Source: a virus
DNA length: 28,819 nucleotides
Direction: 5' to 3' (one strand)
IMG/VR virus record: IMGVR_UViG_3300049432_000206
Coordinates: 1-28,819 of that record
Positions 3,304 through 13,735 of the stretch are shown here, piece after piece. The number at the start of each line of letters is the position of its first letter. Positions within the stretch are counted from its first letter, which is position 1. The position numbers and the translations under genes were made by a program. Below the pieces are notes generated by a model. The model was not told the DNA's origin and ran no database searches. It saw nothing but the letters and a program-made list of their open reading frames with translations.

Positions 3304-3460
3304 CCGGGTATGCGCGTGTGCGCACATCCGGTACACGCGACCGCGCACACCCGGCCGTGCGCCTTGGCGTGTATCGGGTATGCGCGTAGCCGTGCACCTG
3401 TTCATCCGCACACCGGGTCTGCGCGTAAGCGCACGCCGGGTGTTCGCCTTCGCGCACACC
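3304..3460. repeat. Cluster of GGGTATGCGCGT-type repeats in both orientations
   Basis: Forward copies are GGGTATGCGCGT at 3306 and again identically at 3376, GGGTCTGCGCGT at 3415 and a diverged GGGTGTTCGCCT at 3438. Reverse copies include GTGCGCACATCC (3318), CGCGCACACCC (3342), CGCACACCGGG (3408), GCGCACGCC (3429) and CGCGCACACC (3451). The first forward and reverse copies abut to form a 28-bp imperfect palindrome. The last two forward copies are 23 bases apart, the same period as the iterons at 6842-6930, with which they share GGGTAYGCGC. Confidence 0.7.
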
Positions 3461-3482
3461 GTTCAAACAATCGGGAGCACCT

Positions 3483-5174
3483 ATGAACGACGATGGAAAC
3501 GATGAGATTGTCGGGTACGAGATTGTCGGGTTTAAGGATCACGTGCCGCCCTCGACTGAGGACAACCTCGAGGAAGAAGAGTCGCCGGAAGCGATCGAGC
3601 CTCCGGACAAGACTGTTCTGTACACGCACGGCTGGCTGAAGAAGTTCGGACCACTTCTCAATGAGTCTGAGCGGCGGGTGTACGACGTTTTTGCGATCAA
3701 CTATGAGACTAAATTCGATGGGCTGGTCTGGATGGACCAGGGGAAGCTGGCTGAGAGCGCGGGTTATCAACGTCGCCAAACGGTCGGCGAAGCAATCCGC
3801 GGATTGAAGGCAAAGGGGCTGATCGACATCATCGACTGGCCGATCACCGTGATGGATCACGACGCCGGTGAACGGTTCCGCAATGTTGGCGGCGGGCGCG
3901 GCTCAGGCACTCATAACGTATTCATCCTTCTTCACGTCGACGACAGCGGCTATCACCGAGAAAAACGGGTTCGTCCAAACGTGCAAGAACTTCGACGAAC
4001 GCACGAAGAGTCGGCCGATCTTCCGGGGATTCTTACGCAAATGGTGCTGCAGGGGAAAAGTTATAAGTCCGTGCGCGAGTACGTCATTTCGAAATACCCG
4101 TTCGCGACGAACATTCCCATCTGGTGTGTGCCGGACGACATTGTGCTTGATGATCTCATGCAGCCCGAGAATTTCGGATTCGATTCGATGTTGATGGCCG
4201 GAGTGCTTTTGCCGATCAACGCGCTGAGGGGGAAGTATCCAGACGTTGGAAAGCCAGACATGGGGCTGATCCTCCAACACCCGACGCACGGCGACCCGTC
4301 GCTGATCGGTGAACGAGCGTTCGGACCTTACAGGCAGGCCGCGCAGGCGCTCGAAGAGTCGGGCAAAGCGGAGCAGATTCTTCGCGAGGCATCGGATAAC
4401 CGCGGCAAGTTTGATTTGCCGGCGATGTATCACGGCCGACCGCCGGGCTTAAAGGAGGTGGCGCCAGCAATGTTCGAAATGTCCGAGAAACTCAATGTCG
4501 CGCCCGCGCATCTCGTGCCGATGGCGCGCGATATTGCCATCAAAAGTGGGATGGTAATTATGATGATGAATGAAGATGGCGAAGGCGTCGCTATCGATTG
4601 CAAGGATCCGGATGAGTTTGTCGACGACGCCACGAAGCGCCTTGCGCTTCTCAGCGAGCAGGACCTAACCGAGCATGAAGCTCAAAATCGCGAGGAGACG
4701 GACCAGTTAATCAGGGCCGCGCAGCAGCGTGTCCGAGAAACTTTTTTTCATCATCTGCTGCGGGGGTCCGAGCCAGACGAAGCTGACAAAGATCTGCGAA
4801 CCTTGTTCACTGTCAACAATTTTAATGACTGGGTTCAGCAGGTGAACGGTCGCACCTACGCCGCACCGTTAATCCCGTTGATCCCCACTGATGCGAATGA
4901 GGCTCGCGCGCTCGCGTGCGCGGTTGCCGAGAGGAAAGGTGAAGCCTGTCGGTGCGAAGCGCCCAAGGAGCTCGCCTTCACTCCGGCACTGAATGAGACA
5001 GATCGGAAGATTGCCGACTACATCCGCGCTCACCCGGGCGAAAAGGGTTTGGTGATCGCTGCAGCGGTCGTCGTGACGCAGGAACATTTCAGACGGGTCT
5101 TCTCGACGAAGCTGGCGGCGCACGGTTTTACCAATCCCGGCAACGGCGACGGGTATTTCCCGCCGCCGGCGTAG
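3483..5174 (+). CDS. Large winged-helix DNA-binding protein, possible replication or early regulator
   Basis: A 563-aa acidic protein. After an acidic N-terminus (about 24-42) residues about 58-125 form a winged-helix-like domain (LNESERRVYDVFAINYETKF, then LAESAGYQRRQTVGEAIRGL, then KAKGLIDII), of the kind found in phage and plasmid replication initiators. A second short HTH-like segment lies near the C-terminus (about 500-560: LNETDRKIADYIRAHPGEKG then a recognition-like helix QEHFRRVFSTKLAAHGF). The middle is unassigned. A GGGAG Shine-Dalgarno sits 5 bases before the ATG. The repeat array ends only about 20 bases upstream, so it may bind that array and control itself or start replication. 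A 15-bp coding repeat gives EIVGYEIVG at residues 8-16. Function is inferred from fold and context. Confidence 0.75.
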   Translation: MNDDGNDEIVGYEIVGFKDHVPPSTEDNLEEEESPEAIEPPDKTVLYTHGWLKKFGPLLNESERRVYDVFAINYETKFDGLVWMDQGKLAESAGYQRRQTVGEAIRGLKAKGLIDIIDWPITVMDHDAGERFRNVGGGRGSGTHNVFILLHVDDSGYHREKRVRPNVQELRRTHEESADLPGILTQMVLQGKSYKSVREYVISKYPFATNIPIWCVPDDIVLDDLMQPENFGFDSMLMAGVLLPINALRGKYPDVGKPDMGLILQHPTHGDPSLIGERAFGPYRQAAQALEESGKAEQILREASDNRGKFDLPAMYHGRPPGLKEVAPAMFEMSEKLNVAPAHLVPMARDIAIKSGMVIMMMNEDGEGVAIDCKDPDEFVDDATKRLALLSEQDLTEHEAQNREETDQLIRAAQQRVRETFFHHLLRGSEPDEADKDLRTLFTVNNFNDWVQQVNGRTYAAPLIPLIPTDANEARALACAVAERKGEACRCEAPKELAFTPALNETDRKIADYIRAHPGEKGLVIAAAVVVTQEHFRRVFSTKLAAHGFTNPGNGDGYFPPPA

Positions 5175-5290: not shown

Positions 5291-5509
5291 ATGGCAGAAC
5301 ACATCACCGTCAGCGAGGCGGCTCGAGAACTCGCTGTCGCCCCCAGGTTAATTAGCGACCTTTTCTACCGCAGGCTTCTCGACGATGCCGCTGCGCCGAT
5401 CGTGGGCGGCCGAAGAATCATTCCGCGGACCTACCTCGACAACATTCGCGCGGTCTTGAGCCAGGCTGGACATCTGCCGGAAGCGGAGGCGGTGGCTCAT
5501 GCAAGCTAA
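5291..5509 (+). CDS. Small HTH DNA-binding protein
   Basis: A 72-aa protein with a helix-turn-helix of the excisionase/MerR type: ITVSEAARELAVAPRLISDL, then a wing FYRRLLDDAAAPIVGGRRII. It may be a transcription regulator of the early or replication genes, or a second excisionase-like factor. Its GGAGG ribosome binding site is within the stem at 5238-5288, so its translation is probably low unless the hairpin is opened. Its stop overlaps the start of the next gene by 11 bases, which points to co-translation of two DNA-binding proteins. Confidence 0.75.
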   Translation: MAEHITVSEAARELAVAPRLISDLFYRRLLDDAAAPIVGGRRIIPRTYLDNIRAVLSQAGHLPEAEAVAHAS

Positions 5510-5876
5510 AGCTCCACCGAAAAGAACCACCGCGCCGGCCGGCGGTGATCAAGACGCAAACGTTCTGGCAGATCTCGAAGCTGGCGAAGATGCGATCCCG
5601 CTGGCCGAGGTGCGCGATCAAACCTTCTGTCCGAAACGGCGAGGGAAAAAGCTCGACCGCAGCGTCGTTTTCAGATGGGCGAGCCGAGGGGTGAGGGGGA
5701 TCAAGCTTGAGACTACCTCCGCCGGCGGCCTGAGGATCACAACGAAGAGCGCGGTGCTGAGATTCTTCCACGGACTGAACGGCGGCGCCGCGTCCTCGCC
5801 GATACCAACGACGAAATCGAAAACCGCCAACGTTGACCGCGCTGCGCGCGAGCTGGCCACGATGGGGATGAAATGA
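5499..5876 (+). CDS. DUF1580-like DNA-binding protein
   Basis: A 125-aa protein whose middle (about 33-90) matches the pattern I know for DUF1580, a family seen mainly in planctomycetes. The pattern is a start with IPLAEVRDQTFCPKRRGKK, then VVFRWASRGVRGIKLET, then GGLRITTKSAVLRFFHGL. It resembles an HTH-17-like domain that picks a sequence with its RWA-x-RGVRG helix. N- and C-terminal tails are low complexity. It overlaps the preceding HTH gene by 11 bases. The role is probably transcription control or genome maintenance; no direct evidence shows which. The family resemblance is from memory and should be confirmed by profile search. Confidence 0.7.
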   Translation: MQAKAPPKRTTAPAGGDQDANVLADLEAGEDAIPLAEVRDQTFCPKRRGKKLDRSVVFRWASRGVRGIKLETTSAGGLRITTKSAVLRFFHGLNGGAASSPIPTTKSKTANVDRAARELATMGMK

Positions 5877-6378: not shown

Positions 6379-7401
6379 ATGTCGAAACGATCCCCAAACC
6401 CCGACGCCCGCACTCTGTTCGAAGATCGATCGAACAAGGTCGCGAAATGGATCAAAGCCGTCGTTGATCAAGGACTTCTCCATTCCATGACTGAGCTCGA
6501 CACCAAGGTCGCCATGGCGCTTGCATCACACGCCGATTACACGGATCTGACCCTGTATCCCTCGGTACGCGCTCTAGCAGTGAAAATTGGCACGAAAGTT
6601 CCCCAACGCGTCAGAAAATCAATGGAGCGATTGGAGGCGATTGGTCTAATGCGAACGATAGAGCCTGGCGGCCGCGAGAGCCGGGACAGCCGGGGCCGCG
6701 CCACGCTTCGCCAACTCATAATCCCTGCCGAAACCGTTGCGGATCGGGGCTCATCGATAGGTACGCCCAGCGTACCCATCACAAAGCCGCCGACGGGTGC
6801 CCTCGGAGCACCCGTTGGATCACTTCCGACTGGGGCTGGATGGGTGCCCCCAGCGACATCCGATGGGTGCTCTGCGCGACATCCGATGGGTACGCGCAGC
6901 GACGATGAAGGGGTACGCGCAGAGTACCCCCAACCTCTTATAACTACCCAACTGAACTCTTCAGGAACCTTTCTGCCGCTGGCGCGGGTGCCGGAACCGA
7001 CCGGAAAGCCCCCGGTTAAGGCTCCCGCCAGAACGCCCGCCAGGAAGCAGCCCCAGCCGCCCACGGGCCATCAAGAACTCACCCGCTATTGGGTCAATCA
7101 GTGGAGTGAAAAATACAAGAGACCCTTTCCCTTCGGCGCTGGCGGGAATGGGTCGCGCCACGGGAAGTGCATCAAGTTCATCCTCGAATCGTGTGGCGGC
7201 GCGCTCGAAGACGCGAAAGCAGTCATCGACCGTTTTCTGTCCTGCGGAGACGGATTCTTCAACGGGCATCCGCTCGCGATGCTCGCCACCCCAACCCAAC
7301 TTCCGAAATTTCTCGTTGAACAAGTCAGCACCACGAAAGGCCGAATCAATGGACACCGATCAAGCAAAACAAGCGGACGCGAAGAGCACATCGAGTTCTA
7401 G
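6379..7401 (+). CDS. O-like replication initiator with an internal origin
   Basis: A 340-aa protein that fits a phage replication initiator (lambda O/DnaD-like organisation). Residues about 38-95 are a winged helix (MTELDTKVAMALASHADYTD, LYPSVRALAVKIGTK, VRKSMERLEAIGLMRTI). Residues about 100-225 are a Pro/Gly-rich linker. Residues about 228-300 form a second helical domain (TRYWVNQWSEKYKRPFPFGA ... AKAVIDRFLS) that in such proteins contacts the helicase loader or single-stranded DNA. The helicase loader follows directly, overlapping by 53 bases. The linker DNA contains a 23-bp iteron array (6842-6930), as lambda O contains ori. No strong Shine-Dalgarno precedes the ATG. The assignment rests on domain order, origin and neighbour, not on close sequence identity. 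Confidence 0.8.
   Translation: MSKRSPNPDARTLFEDRSNKVAKWIKAVVDQGLLHSMTELDTKVAMALASHADYTDLTLYPSVRALAVKIGTKVPQRVRKSMERLEAIGLMRTIEPGGRESRDSRGRATLRQLIIPAETVADRGSSIGTPSVPITKPPTGALGAPVGSLPTGAGWVPPATSDGCSARHPMGTRSDDEGVRAEYPQPLITTQLNSSGTFLPLARVPEPTGKPPVKAPARTPARKQPQPPTGHQELTRYWVNQWSEKYKRPFPFGAGGNGSRHGKCIKFILESCGGALEDAKAVIDRFLSCGDGFFNGHPLAMLATPTQLPKFLVEQVSTTKGRINGHRSSKTSGREEHIEF
6759..6813. repeat. Two palindromic outlying iterons
   Basis: GGTACGCCCAGCGTACC (6760-6776) and GGGTGCCCTCGGAGCACCC (6795-6813) are inverted-repeat versions of the iteron seen downstream. The second begins 47 bases before the regular array, close to two periods. Confidence 0.65.
6842..6930 (+). repeat. Four iterons at exact 23-bp spacing: candidate replication origin
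   Basis: Copies start at 6842 (GGGTGCCCCCAGCGACATCC), 6865 (GGGTGCTCTGCGCGACATCC), 6888 (GGGTACGCGCAGCGACGATG) and 6911 (GGGTACGCGCAGAGTACCCC). The period of 23 is not a multiple of three, so the repeat is read in three different frames and gives unrelated peptides. Selection must therefore be on DNA. A stretch of about 57% A+T (6931-6965, with CTCTTATAACTA) follows and could be the unwinding element. Confidence 0.85.
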
Positions 7402-8389
7402 CGACGACGGCGGCGACGTGATGCTCATGTCGATCACGCTGAATCGCGCGAACATTGCGACAGCCGGCATGACGTCACAGCAGATCCGCGATCGCTATCA
7501 GCAGCATCGCGCTGAAGCAGATCGATCGGCGGAAGAGCGGGATCGAGCCGCCACGGAAGATCGGCTCAAGAGACTCCGCCGCGCGCACGAGGAAAACATG
7601 CGCGAGGCCTTGGAGCGTCGAAAAATCGACGCGACGGGAATGTCGATCGAGCAGATGGAGACCAAGCTCGCGTACCTGCAGGCCGCGGATAGGGAGCGCG
7701 AAGCAGAATCACGGCGCCGACGGGAAGTAGATCAACGAAAGCAACGCGCGGCCGCACTGTTCGCCCTGGCTCAGTGCCCGGAGCGTCACGTAGCAAATAT
7801 GGCGATGGCTGAGGCGACGGATAATCCACGCTGGAAAGCGGTTCGTGATCAGCTCGTCGATCGGATTCAGTACGCCGACGGATTCCTCGTCGCGCTGCTC
7901 GGCATCCGGGGCCCGGGCAAAACTCAAATTGCGGTGAGCGTAATTCATCGCGCGACGGCGCAGATGTGCACCGCCAGATACGTAAAAGCGATGGATCTGT
8001 TCAGACTGATTCGTCGCGCCTTTGCTTCTCGCGAGCGTGGTGAAGCCAGCGAGATGGAAGACGACATCGTCGAAGAGTTGGTCGCGTTCGACCTGCTGGT
8101 GATCGATGAGCTCGACCAGCGAGGCCAGACGGACTGGGAGCAAAACGTGTTGGTCAACCTGATCGATCGGCGATACGACGCGCGCAAGTGCACGCTGCTG
8201 ATATCGAACGCCGAGAAACCGAACTTTGCTGCGATGATGGGCGCCAGCGTCGCCAGCCGCATCGCCGAGACCGGAGAATCGATCGAATGTGAGTGGCCGT
8301 CATACCGCCGGCCTGGATCGTGGAAGACCCGCGGCGACGAGCCCCGAAAGCCATCCGGCCAGGTGAATGAATCACGGGAGGATTTATGA
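7349..8389 (+). CDS. DnaC/IstB-like AAA+ helicase loader
   Basis: A 346-aa protein that would load the replicative helicase at the phage origin. Residues about 40-135 are a highly charged, coiled-coil-like region. The AAA+ part holds Walker A GIRGPGKT (185-192), Walker B LLVIDE (249-254), a sensor-1-like LLISN (283-287) and a candidate arginine finger in SVASRIAE (R304). This is the DnaC/IstB family order. It sits straight after the O-like initiator as lambda P follows O. The ATG at 7349 has GAAAGG 8 bases upstream and overlaps the previous gene by 53 bases; ATGs at 7421 and 7427 are alternatives but lack a clear ribosome binding site and would remove only a Ser/Asp-rich tail. Confidence 0.88.
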   Translation: MDTDQAKQADAKSTSSSSDDGGDVMLMSITLNRANIATAGMTSQQIRDRYQQHRAEADRSAEERDRAATEDRLKRLRRAHEENMREALERRKIDATGMSIEQMETKLAYLQAADREREAESRRRREVDQRKQRAAALFALAQCPERHVANMAMAEATDNPRWKAVRDQLVDRIQYADGFLVALLGIRGPGKTQIAVSVIHRATAQMCTARYVKAMDLFRLIRRAFASRERGEASEMEDDIVEELVAFDLLVIDELDQRGQTDWEQNVLVNLIDRRYDARKCTLLISNAEKPNFAAMMGASVASRIAETGESIECEWPSYRRPGSWKTRGDEPRKPSGQVNESREDL

Positions 8390-12404: not shown

Positions 12405-12776
12405 GTGCCATCCTATCCATGCCGCCACCCGACCTGCACCACGTACGTCAAACGACGCGGCGAATACTGCATTGAACACGAGCAGCAGGGGAGGGATGAG
12501 CGCGCGAAGCGCGGCCAGTTCTACGACCAGCACCAGCGCGACGCTGAAGCAAAAGCGTTCTACAACTCCGCGGCCTGGCAGCGGGCCCGCGCGGACAAGC
12601 TCGCGGCCGATCCTGTTTGCGAGCGGTGCCGGCGCGTGTTCGCGCAGCACGTGCACCACCGGATCCCGCTCGCGCGATGCACGCCGGAGCAGAAACTCGA
12701 CCGGGCAAATCTGATGAGCGCGTGCCAGCCCTGTCACAACATCATCGAAGCGGAGGCGCGATGTACGTCAAGATGA
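12405..12776 (+). CDS. HNH endonuclease
   Basis: A 123-aa HNH nuclease. HNH proteins next to terminase genes help cut concatemeric DNA at cos sites during packaging in HK97-like phages. The core motif is VHHRIP (H84, H85), N102 in RANLMSACQPCHN, and H111. A structural zinc site is formed by C72/C75 and C107/C110. A second small Cys/His cluster (C6, H8, C11, C22, H25) marks the N-terminus. The start is GTG at 12405 with a poor ribosome binding site; translation may be coupled to the small ORF ending 12 bases before. It overlaps the start of the glycosyltransferase-like gene by 16 bases. Confidence 0.9.
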   Translation: MPSYPCRHPTCTTYVKRRGEYCIEHEQQGRDERAKRGQFYDQHQRDAEAKAFYNSAAWQRARADKLAADPVCERCRRVFAQHVHHRIPLARCTPEQKLDRANLMSACQPCHNIIEAEARCTSR

Positions 12777-13735
12777 AGCAGACGCTGCACACCGCCACCG
12801 GCGCCTATCTCTACAAGCGGATTTACGAGGTTGATGACGTGATCGGCGAAGAGTGGGACCGAAAAAAGGTCGCGGCGCGATCCACCGAGCCGCCGCCGCA
12901 CATCGCCGAGCTGCTGGCGCGGCTGGAGGATGGCGCCGGCGAGAGCTGCCTTTTTCTGCCGTTCGTGGGGGAGTTCGGCCACGAAATCCTCACTCACATC
13001 CGCATCGTTCACTTCCACCGCGCCGCCGCCAAGGTTGTTTGCTGCCGGCCGGGGTCGGAGATCCTGTATCCGTCAGCATCGGCGCACGTGACCGACTGGA
13101 AAGACCCGATCCCCGACGAGCGGCGGGCGGGAACGATTCGCGAGGGCGAAATCTTCTGGCCGGAGATCGTCAATCGCTTCCCATCGCTTCACCAGGTGCC
13201 CGCCGGCGGCCTGACCTACCAGCAGGAAATGTACGCCATTGAGCCAGACGCGCGGATTCCGTTCCGACCAAAGCGGCGAGGACTGCGGGTCGATGTTGTT
13301 TTCGGGGTGCGCCGCCGCGCGTTTGCCCCGGAAAAGAACTGGCAGCACTGGCAGAAAGTGGCCGACGCGATCGCCCGCGCGGGCTACAGCTTCGCCGTGA
13401 TCGGCGCGCGAGAGACAAGCGACGACCTGCGCGGCCAGCGATGCCACAGCGGCGACCTCGACACCGATGCGGCCATCGAGCTTTTGCAGAATTGCCGGCT
13501 GTACGTCGGGTCCGACTCAGGCAACTCACACCTCGCCAGCACCGTCGGCGCGTCGATGCTGATCTTCCGGGAACCGCGAAACGGGATGCGCGATTTCGTC
13601 CCGCGCATGAAGCTCGTCAACCCCGATCGCATCGAGTTCGACGCCGAGGGATGGGACAATCCCGAATCCGTCATCGTCCGCACGCTCGAAACGCTGCGCG
13701 CTTCCGAAGTGCCGCGGGAGGTAGCCGTCGCGTGA
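12761..13735 (+). CDS. Glycosyltransferase-like protein (GT9 type) with a phage N-terminal module
   Basis: A 324-aa protein resembling heptosyltransferase-family (GT9, GT-B fold) enzymes. The C-terminal half has VFGVRRRAFAPEKNWQHW (180s) where the acceptor-linker begins, the strand YSFAVIGARE, a GDLDTDAAIELLQNCRLYVG segment, and the nucleotide-sugar motif SDSGNSHLAS (251-260). The N-terminal part also has a GEFGHEILTHIRIVHFHR region. The first 35 residues (KQTLHTATGAYLYKRIYEVD) resemble the start of the small head protein at 19022. GGAGG sits 5 bases before the ATG at 12761. It lies between HNH and terL with overlaps on both sides, so it is a stable part of the packaging operon. Its target (phage DNA, capsid or host glycan) is unknown. 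Confidence 0.7.
   Translation: MYVKMKQTLHTATGAYLYKRIYEVDDVIGEEWDRKKVAARSTEPPPHIAELLARLEDGAGESCLFLPFVGEFGHEILTHIRIVHFHRAAAKVVCCRPGSEILYPSASAHVTDWKDPIPDERRAGTIREGEIFWPEIVNRFPSLHQVPAGGLTYQQEMYAIEPDARIPFRPKRRGLRVDVVFGVRRRAFAPEKNWQHWQKVADAIARAGYSFAVIGARETSDDLRGQRCHSGDLDTDAAIELLQNCRLYVGSDSGNSHLASTVGASMLIFREPRNGMRDFVPRMKLVNPDRIEFDAEGWDNPESVIVRTLETLRASEVPREVAVA

What the first reader, a model, noticed from the sequence alone, without database searches (positions are those of the whole stretch)
6842..6930. A lambda-like origin inside the O-like initiator gene: four iterons at exactly 23 bp
Four GGGT(A/G)C-GCGCAGCGAC-type repeats begin at 6842, 6865, 6888 and 6911. The period is not a multiple of three, so they encode unrelated peptides in the linker of the protein. 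DNA-level selection is the simplest explanation. Two palindromic relatives lie upstream (6760, 6795) and an AT-richer stretch downstream (6931-6965), and a helicase loader gene follows. This is the arrangement of lambda oriλ in gene O, but with a different repeat and in a phage of a probably planctomycete host.
Basis: partly seen in the sequence, partly recalled or inferred. Interest (0 to 1): 0.85.

Follow-up and report, generated by a model that had tools for sequence, protein, structure and literature searches.

The report
Lambda-type replication origin inside initiator gene
This virus carries its probable DNA-replication start site inside the gene for the protein that recognises it, as phage lambda does; the repeats look like a diverged version of a recognition code shared by many other phages, so it is a well-supported new example of a known design.

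Summary
Four 23-bp iterons start at 6842, 6865, 6888 and 6911, in the linker of a 340-aa winged-helix protein. They are the strongest repeat in the window and far beyond chance (0 of 2000 synonymous-codon shuffles). They are read in all three codon phases, so selection acts on DNA. The basic unit is a 19-bp dyad, GGGTRC-N7-GYACCC. Its three best matches in 28.8 kb (6759, 6795, 6911) all lie in this gene. An AT-rich, easily melted stretch (6931-6965) and a DnaC-type helicase loader gene follow.

Comparison supports the interpretation. A search with the protein's wHTH domain alone found an IMG/VR initiator with the same layout: two palindromes, tandem half-dyads, a final palindrome, then a loader gene. 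A DNA-pattern scan found about 37 more O-like genes with GGGTGC iterons at 21-23 bp, with various helicase-loading partners. In 61 of 79 genes upstream of DnaC-like loaders there are tandem repeats, 22 times denser than elsewhere.

Best reading: an in-gene iteron origin that works like ori-lambda. The window protein is too diverged to meet the PF04492 or PHROG O-like models. Host and binding are untested. A second dyad array (3305-3462) is unexplained. New member of a known kind.

The parts
6379..7401 (+). Initiator gene, 340 aa: wHTH DNA-binding domain (aa 10-95), disordered linker (aa 123-224) that carries the origin, helical C-terminal domain (aa 231-323)
   Evidence: HTH_36 E=9.5e-5, below the curated cut-off; family profile 21.5 bits against at most 3.6 for 500 shuffles; AlphaFold2 model
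6759..6777 (.). Upstream palindromic site 1, AGGTACGCCCAGCGTACCC (extends to 6756-6780)
   Evidence: third-best match to GGGTRC-N7-GYACCC in the whole window, 11/12
6795..6813 (.). Upstream palindromic site 2, GGGTGCCCTCGGAGCACCC (extends to 6790-6818)
   Evidence: perfect 12/12 match
6842..6860 (+). Iteron 1, GGGTGCCCCCAGCGACATC (left half-site only)
6865..6883 (+). Iteron 2, GGGTGCTCTGCGCGACATC (left half-site only)
6888..6906 (+). Iteron 3, GGGTACGCGCAGCGACGAT (left half-site only)
6911..6929 (.). Iteron 4, full palindrome GGGTACGCGCAGAGTACCC
   Evidence: perfect 12/12 dyad match
6931..6965 (.). AT-richer stretch, candidate duplex-unwinding element
   Evidence: 57% AT, 98th percentile; stability percentile 99.7
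7349..8389 (+). DnaC-like AAA+ helicase loader gene, overlapping the initiator's 3' end (start codon at 7349 read from the sequence)
   Evidence: IstB_IS21 E=2.9e-11; phrog_50 DnaC-like helicase loader E=2.6e-28

Best explanation
The stretch 6756-6965 is the phage's theta-type replication origin, built into the disordered linker of its own initiator gene. Proposed mechanism: the N-terminal winged helix, probably as a dimer, binds the GGGTRC half-sites of six sites (two outer palindromes and four at 23 bp, the last a palindrome). Stacked on one face of the helix, these complexes strain the adjacent AT-rich stretch (6931-6965), which melts. The C-terminal domain recruits the DnaC-like loader encoded next door, which places the host replicative helicase. 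Shown: the DNA array, its DNA-level conservation in relatives, the domain layout, the weak wHTH homology and the loader gene. Inferred from the lambda precedent: binding, dimerisation, melting and helicase loading.
For: The array is far beyond chance and read in all three codon phases. The top three dyad sites of the window all lie in this gene. The array falls in the linker predicted disordered (aa 123-224) between a wHTH and a C-terminal domain. A loader gene follows. A protein-only search found L219/L220 (31% identity, E=1e-6): two 19-bp GGGTGC palindromes, two half-dyads, a terminal palindrome, then a DnaC-like loader. A DNA-pattern scan found 39 stretches, about 37 in O-like wHTH genes, with terminal palindrome and 21-23 bp spacing in mixed reading phases. 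Survey: 61 of 79 genes upstream of DnaC-like loaders hold tandem repeats, 91 arrays in 67 kb against 29 in 483 kb of flanks. Lambda's annotated iterons start 20, 24 and 23 bp apart, in mixed codon phases; O binds a 19-bp imperfect inverted repeat next to an AT-rich tract (PMC7466680; PMC3349717).
Against: No binding or replication data exist. The window protein hits no PHROG family at E<=1 and HTH_36 only below the curated cut-off. Its iterons differ from the relatives' consensus: +7 is A in 94 of 95 distinct family units but C, T, G, G here, and +5 is A in two copies. A profile of unselected family units does not single out the window units. GC skew gives no clear switch. A second dyad array exists at 3305-3462.
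Confidence: 0.88

Rival explanations
1. The repeats are operators: the wHTH protein is a transcription factor that binds inside its own gene to control itself or the downstream loader, and replication starts elsewhere.
For: The best PDB fold matches are MarR/Fur-type wHTH repressors, though weak (E at least 0.019). Palindromic tandem sites are also typical of operators.
Against: The array is mid-gene in a disordered linker, beside an AT-rich stretch. The same position and layout recur in genes classed as replication initiation O-like, next to P-, DnaC-, DnaB- or primase-like genes. An initiator may also autoregulate, so the two are not exclusive.
Confidence: 0.06
2. The active origin is the second dyad array at 3305-3462, upstream of the 563-aa ORF, with the in-gene array auxiliary or a relic.
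For: That array is intergenic, with eight CGGGTRTGCGCG-like half-sites and partly a 23-bp period, next to an ORF with weak HTH matches.
Against: The 563-aa ORF has no family match above threshold, no relative was found, its model is unusable, and no loader or helicase gene was recognised beside it. The in-gene array meets every sequence feature of the known design.
Confidence: 0.04
3. The repeats reflect a repetitive, low-complexity linker peptide or chance in GC-rich DNA.
For: Linkers of such proteins are often Pro/Gly/Ala-rich; the window is 60-65% GC.
Against: The period 23 gives different peptides in each copy; 0 of 2000 synonymous-codon or codon-order shuffles reach the observed self-match.
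Confidence: 0.01

Closest known systems
Phage lambda ori-lambda in gene O (NC_001416, 39034-39118 plus AT-rich tract), and the six-iteron Stx phage origins
   Same: Origin in the linker of the wHTH initiator gene, 19-bp imperfect dyads about 20-24 bp apart in mixed codon phases, adjacent AT-rich stretch, overlapping helicase-loader gene. Stx phages have six iterons, four bound strongly; the window has four regular sites and two upstream.
   Different: Different iteron sequence (GGGTRC, not the lambda type ATCCCTCAAAACGAGGGA), milder AT-rich stretch, DnaC-type loader instead of P, no sequence match to Phage_rep_O PF04492.
GGGTGC-iteron O-like initiators of IMG/VR phages and Bordetella phage vB_BbrS_PHB09 (annotated DNA replication protein O; phrog_678, phrog_1032)
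   Same: wHTH (HTH_36) N-terminus, GGGTGC half-sites every 21-23 bp in the linker, last copy a full palindrome, AT-richer sequence after it; L219/L220 also share two upstream palindromes and a DnaC-like loader.
   Different: Their half-site is GGGTGCA in nearly all units; the window has GGGTRC without the A. C-terminal domains differ, and several have a lambda-P-like partner.
Pseudomonas phage Skulduggery (SKUL_49/50) and Alcaligenes phage Piluca (gp025/026)
   Same: Repeats spaced 20-23 bp in the ORF upstream of a DnaC-like loader.
   Different: Other iteron sequences (CCCCTTCGGAAAAC; AGTTCAGTTAGTGAACC).

Membership tests
Lambda-type in-gene iteron origin (functional class) | Tandem dyad iterons within the initiator coding sequence | tested here: met
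Lambda-type in-gene iteron origin (functional class) | Iterons selected as DNA, in several codon phases | tested here: met
   phases 1,0,2,1 in the window; 0,2,2,1 in lambda
Lambda-type in-gene iteron origin (functional class) | AT-rich unwinding stretch next to the last iteron | tested here: met
   57% AT in a GC-rich genome, 98th percentile; stability percentile 99.7; milder than in lambda
Lambda-type in-gene iteron origin (functional class) | Helicase loader encoded immediately downstream | tested here: met
   DnaC-like, phrog_50 E=2.6e-28
Lambda-type in-gene iteron origin (functional class) | Initiator binds the iterons and starts replication there | not testable with these tools
   needs gel shift or footprint and a plasmid replication assay
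Lambda O protein family (PF04492 Phage_rep_O / PHROG O-like) | Sequence match to the family model | tested here: not met
   no PF04492 or PHROG hit at E<=1; only indirect kinship through the HTH_36 O-like family
GGGTGC-iteron O-like family | wHTH homology of the initiator | tested here: met
   profile 21.5 bits, E=4.4e-6; L219 tblastn E=1e-6; BLASTP E=2e-7
GGGTGC-iteron O-like family | Half-site GGGTGCA | tested here: not met
   window has GGGTRC followed by C, T or G
GGGTGC-iteron O-like family | Layout: half-dyads at 21-23 bp, terminal palindrome, AT-richer flank | tested here: met

The most novel reading that the evidence does not exclude
A winged-helix domain and its iteron code travel together as one cassette between phages of distantly related hosts, while the C-terminal domain and helicase-loading partner (P-, DnaC-, DnaB- or primase-like) are exchanged. 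The window would be the most diverged member, possibly in a planctomycete phage, with a shifted half-site (GGGTRC) that tracks its diverged wHTH.
Probability: 0.45. Interest if true: 0.5.

Novelty: new member of a known kind. Interest (0 to 1): 0.36.

Why it matters
It gives a well-delimited candidate origin and initiator for a phage group without a known replication system, useful for building replicons if the host is indeed a planctomycete. It also shows that in-gene iterons can be read by eye or by script to find phage origins: most genes upstream of DnaC-like loaders surveyed here carry tandem repeats, and one half-site class recurs with different helicase-loading partners.

Tried and rejected
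Direct searches with the full initiator found no relative in IMG/VR, INPHARED phages, plasmids or GTDB genomes, nor in the records of the terminase relatives. The loader alone and the 563-aa ORF found none in IMG/VR. Searches in planctomycete genomes were not possible (virus record). Terminase relatives mostly carry other replication genes: L013 has a 1054-aa ORF of other type, L014 a 519-aa HTH ORF with four 45-bp in-frame repeats. DNA patterns with two variable gaps got no answer. GC skew showed only a broad plateau. Chance and peptide-repeat explanations were rejected by shuffles. A profile of unselected family iterons did not single out the window units, so identity of the iteron code is not claimed. 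Note: TRF does not detect lambda's own iterons at score 40, so the survey undercounts.

Full report
OBSERVATION. They form the strongest tandem repeat of the window (TRF score 81) and the best self-match at any lag from 10 to 60. Shuffling synonymous codons within the gene, which keeps the protein and codon usage, never reproduced it (0 of 2000; best 41 against 47 matches in 69). The copies lie in codon phases 1, 0, 2, 1, so they encode different peptides.

ANATOMY. A scan for GGGTRC-N7-GYACCC, a 19-bp dyad, puts its three best matches of the whole window in this gene: 6911 and 6795 (perfect) and 6759 (one mismatch). Copies 1-3 keep only the left half-site. There are thus six sites: two outer palindromes, three half-dyads and a terminal palindrome. 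Right after the last lies 6931-6965, 57% AT (98th percentile) and among the least stable 0.3% of 35-bp stretches. The gene encodes a wHTH (pLDDT 75-94), a linker predicted disordered at aa 123-224 (the sites cover aa 127-184) and a helical C-terminal domain. The next gene overlaps it and encodes a DnaC-like loader (phrog_50 E=2.6e-28).

RELATIVES FOUND BY THE LOADER. An alignment of DnaC-like loaders fetched 80 IMG/VR loci. With five phage comparanda, 79 had an ORF just upstream of the loader. Of these, 61 contain tandem repeats: 91 arrays in 67 kb against 29 in 483 kb of flanking DNA, a 22-fold density. Among 61 non-redundant genes, 44 have arrays, mostly mid-gene, with periods peaking at 21-24 bp, including 22 and 23, which are not multiples of three. 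Some rows are simple or peptide repeats, so this describes a trend and not proven origins. One gene, L122, had GGGTGC iterons, with GGGTRC-N5-RCGACAT shared with the window and absent from the other loci.

RELATIVES FOUND BY DNA PATTERN. A pattern made from the window and L122 hit 39 IMG/VR stretches. About 37 lie in O-like wHTH genes with GGGTGC arrays, a terminal palindrome and often GCATATAACC after it; several are near-duplicates. Spacings are 21 (41), 22 (49) and 23 (5), in mixed phases. The pattern was made after seeing L122, so it shows how common that family is and not, by itself, that the window belongs to it.

INDEPENDENT EVIDENCE. A profile of that family matches the window protein at 21.5 bits, against at most 3.6 for 500 shuffled copies. 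A protein-only search with the wHTH domain found L219/L220 (31% identity, E=1e-6). Their gene, not selected by any DNA pattern, has two 19-bp GGGTGC palindromes, two half-dyads and a terminal palindrome, followed by an AT-richer stretch and a DnaC-like loader. That is the window's layout.

LIMITS. In the family the half-site is GGGTGCA (A at +7 in 94 of 95 distinct units); the window has GGGTRC then C, T or G, and a profile of unselected family units does not pick out its iterons. The window is therefore a diverged relative, or in part a convergent one. Its protein matches neither PF04492 nor any PHROG. The relatives do match PHROG O-like families that lambda O also matches, so kinship to lambda O is indirect.

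COMPARISON WITH LAMBDA. Lambda's annotated iterons start at 39034, 39054, 39078 and 39101, in phases 0, 2, 2, 1. O binds a 19-bp imperfect inverted repeat; Stx phages have six iterons of which four are bound strongly (PMC7466680). Four 18-bp iterons adjoin a 38-bp AT-rich stretch (PMC3349717). The window matches this in every sequence feature, with a different code and another loader type. In the GGGTGC family the downstream gene is lambda-P-like in PHB09, DnaC-like in L186, L214 and L219, and by inspection DnaB- or primase-like in L207 and L212.

HOST. DUF1580 occurs in the window and in L013. That points to a planctomycete from general knowledge of the family, but it was not tested.

VERDICT. 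An in-gene iteron origin that works like ori-lambda: a well-supported new member of a known kind. Binding, melting and loading remain inferred.

Noticed in passing
3305-3462: A second array in the intergenic region before the 563-aa ORF (3483-5174): about eight CGGGTRTGCGCG-like half-sites in both orientations, partly at 23 bp. The half-site resembles iterons 3-4 (GGGTACGCGC). Function unexplained.
   Followed up: partly
L014:583-807: In a phage with a 55% identical terminase, a 519-aa HTH ORF carries four 45-bp in-frame repeats with an imperfect palindrome TTGGAGTCTCGAACTCCAA in its linker, but no DnaC-like loader was seen directly after it.
   Followed up: partly
5499-5876: DUF1580 gene (Pfam E=6.8e-9); two similar genes in L013, a phage with a 69% identical terminase.
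   Followed up: partly
12617-13735: An ORF between an HNH-like gene and the large terminase, with similar ORFs near the terminase in L002 and L014 (glycosyltransferase-like by eye); unusual in a packaging module.
   Followed up: no
L219:5024-5415: 26 copies of a 15-bp repeat downstream of the L219 replication genes.
   Followed up: no
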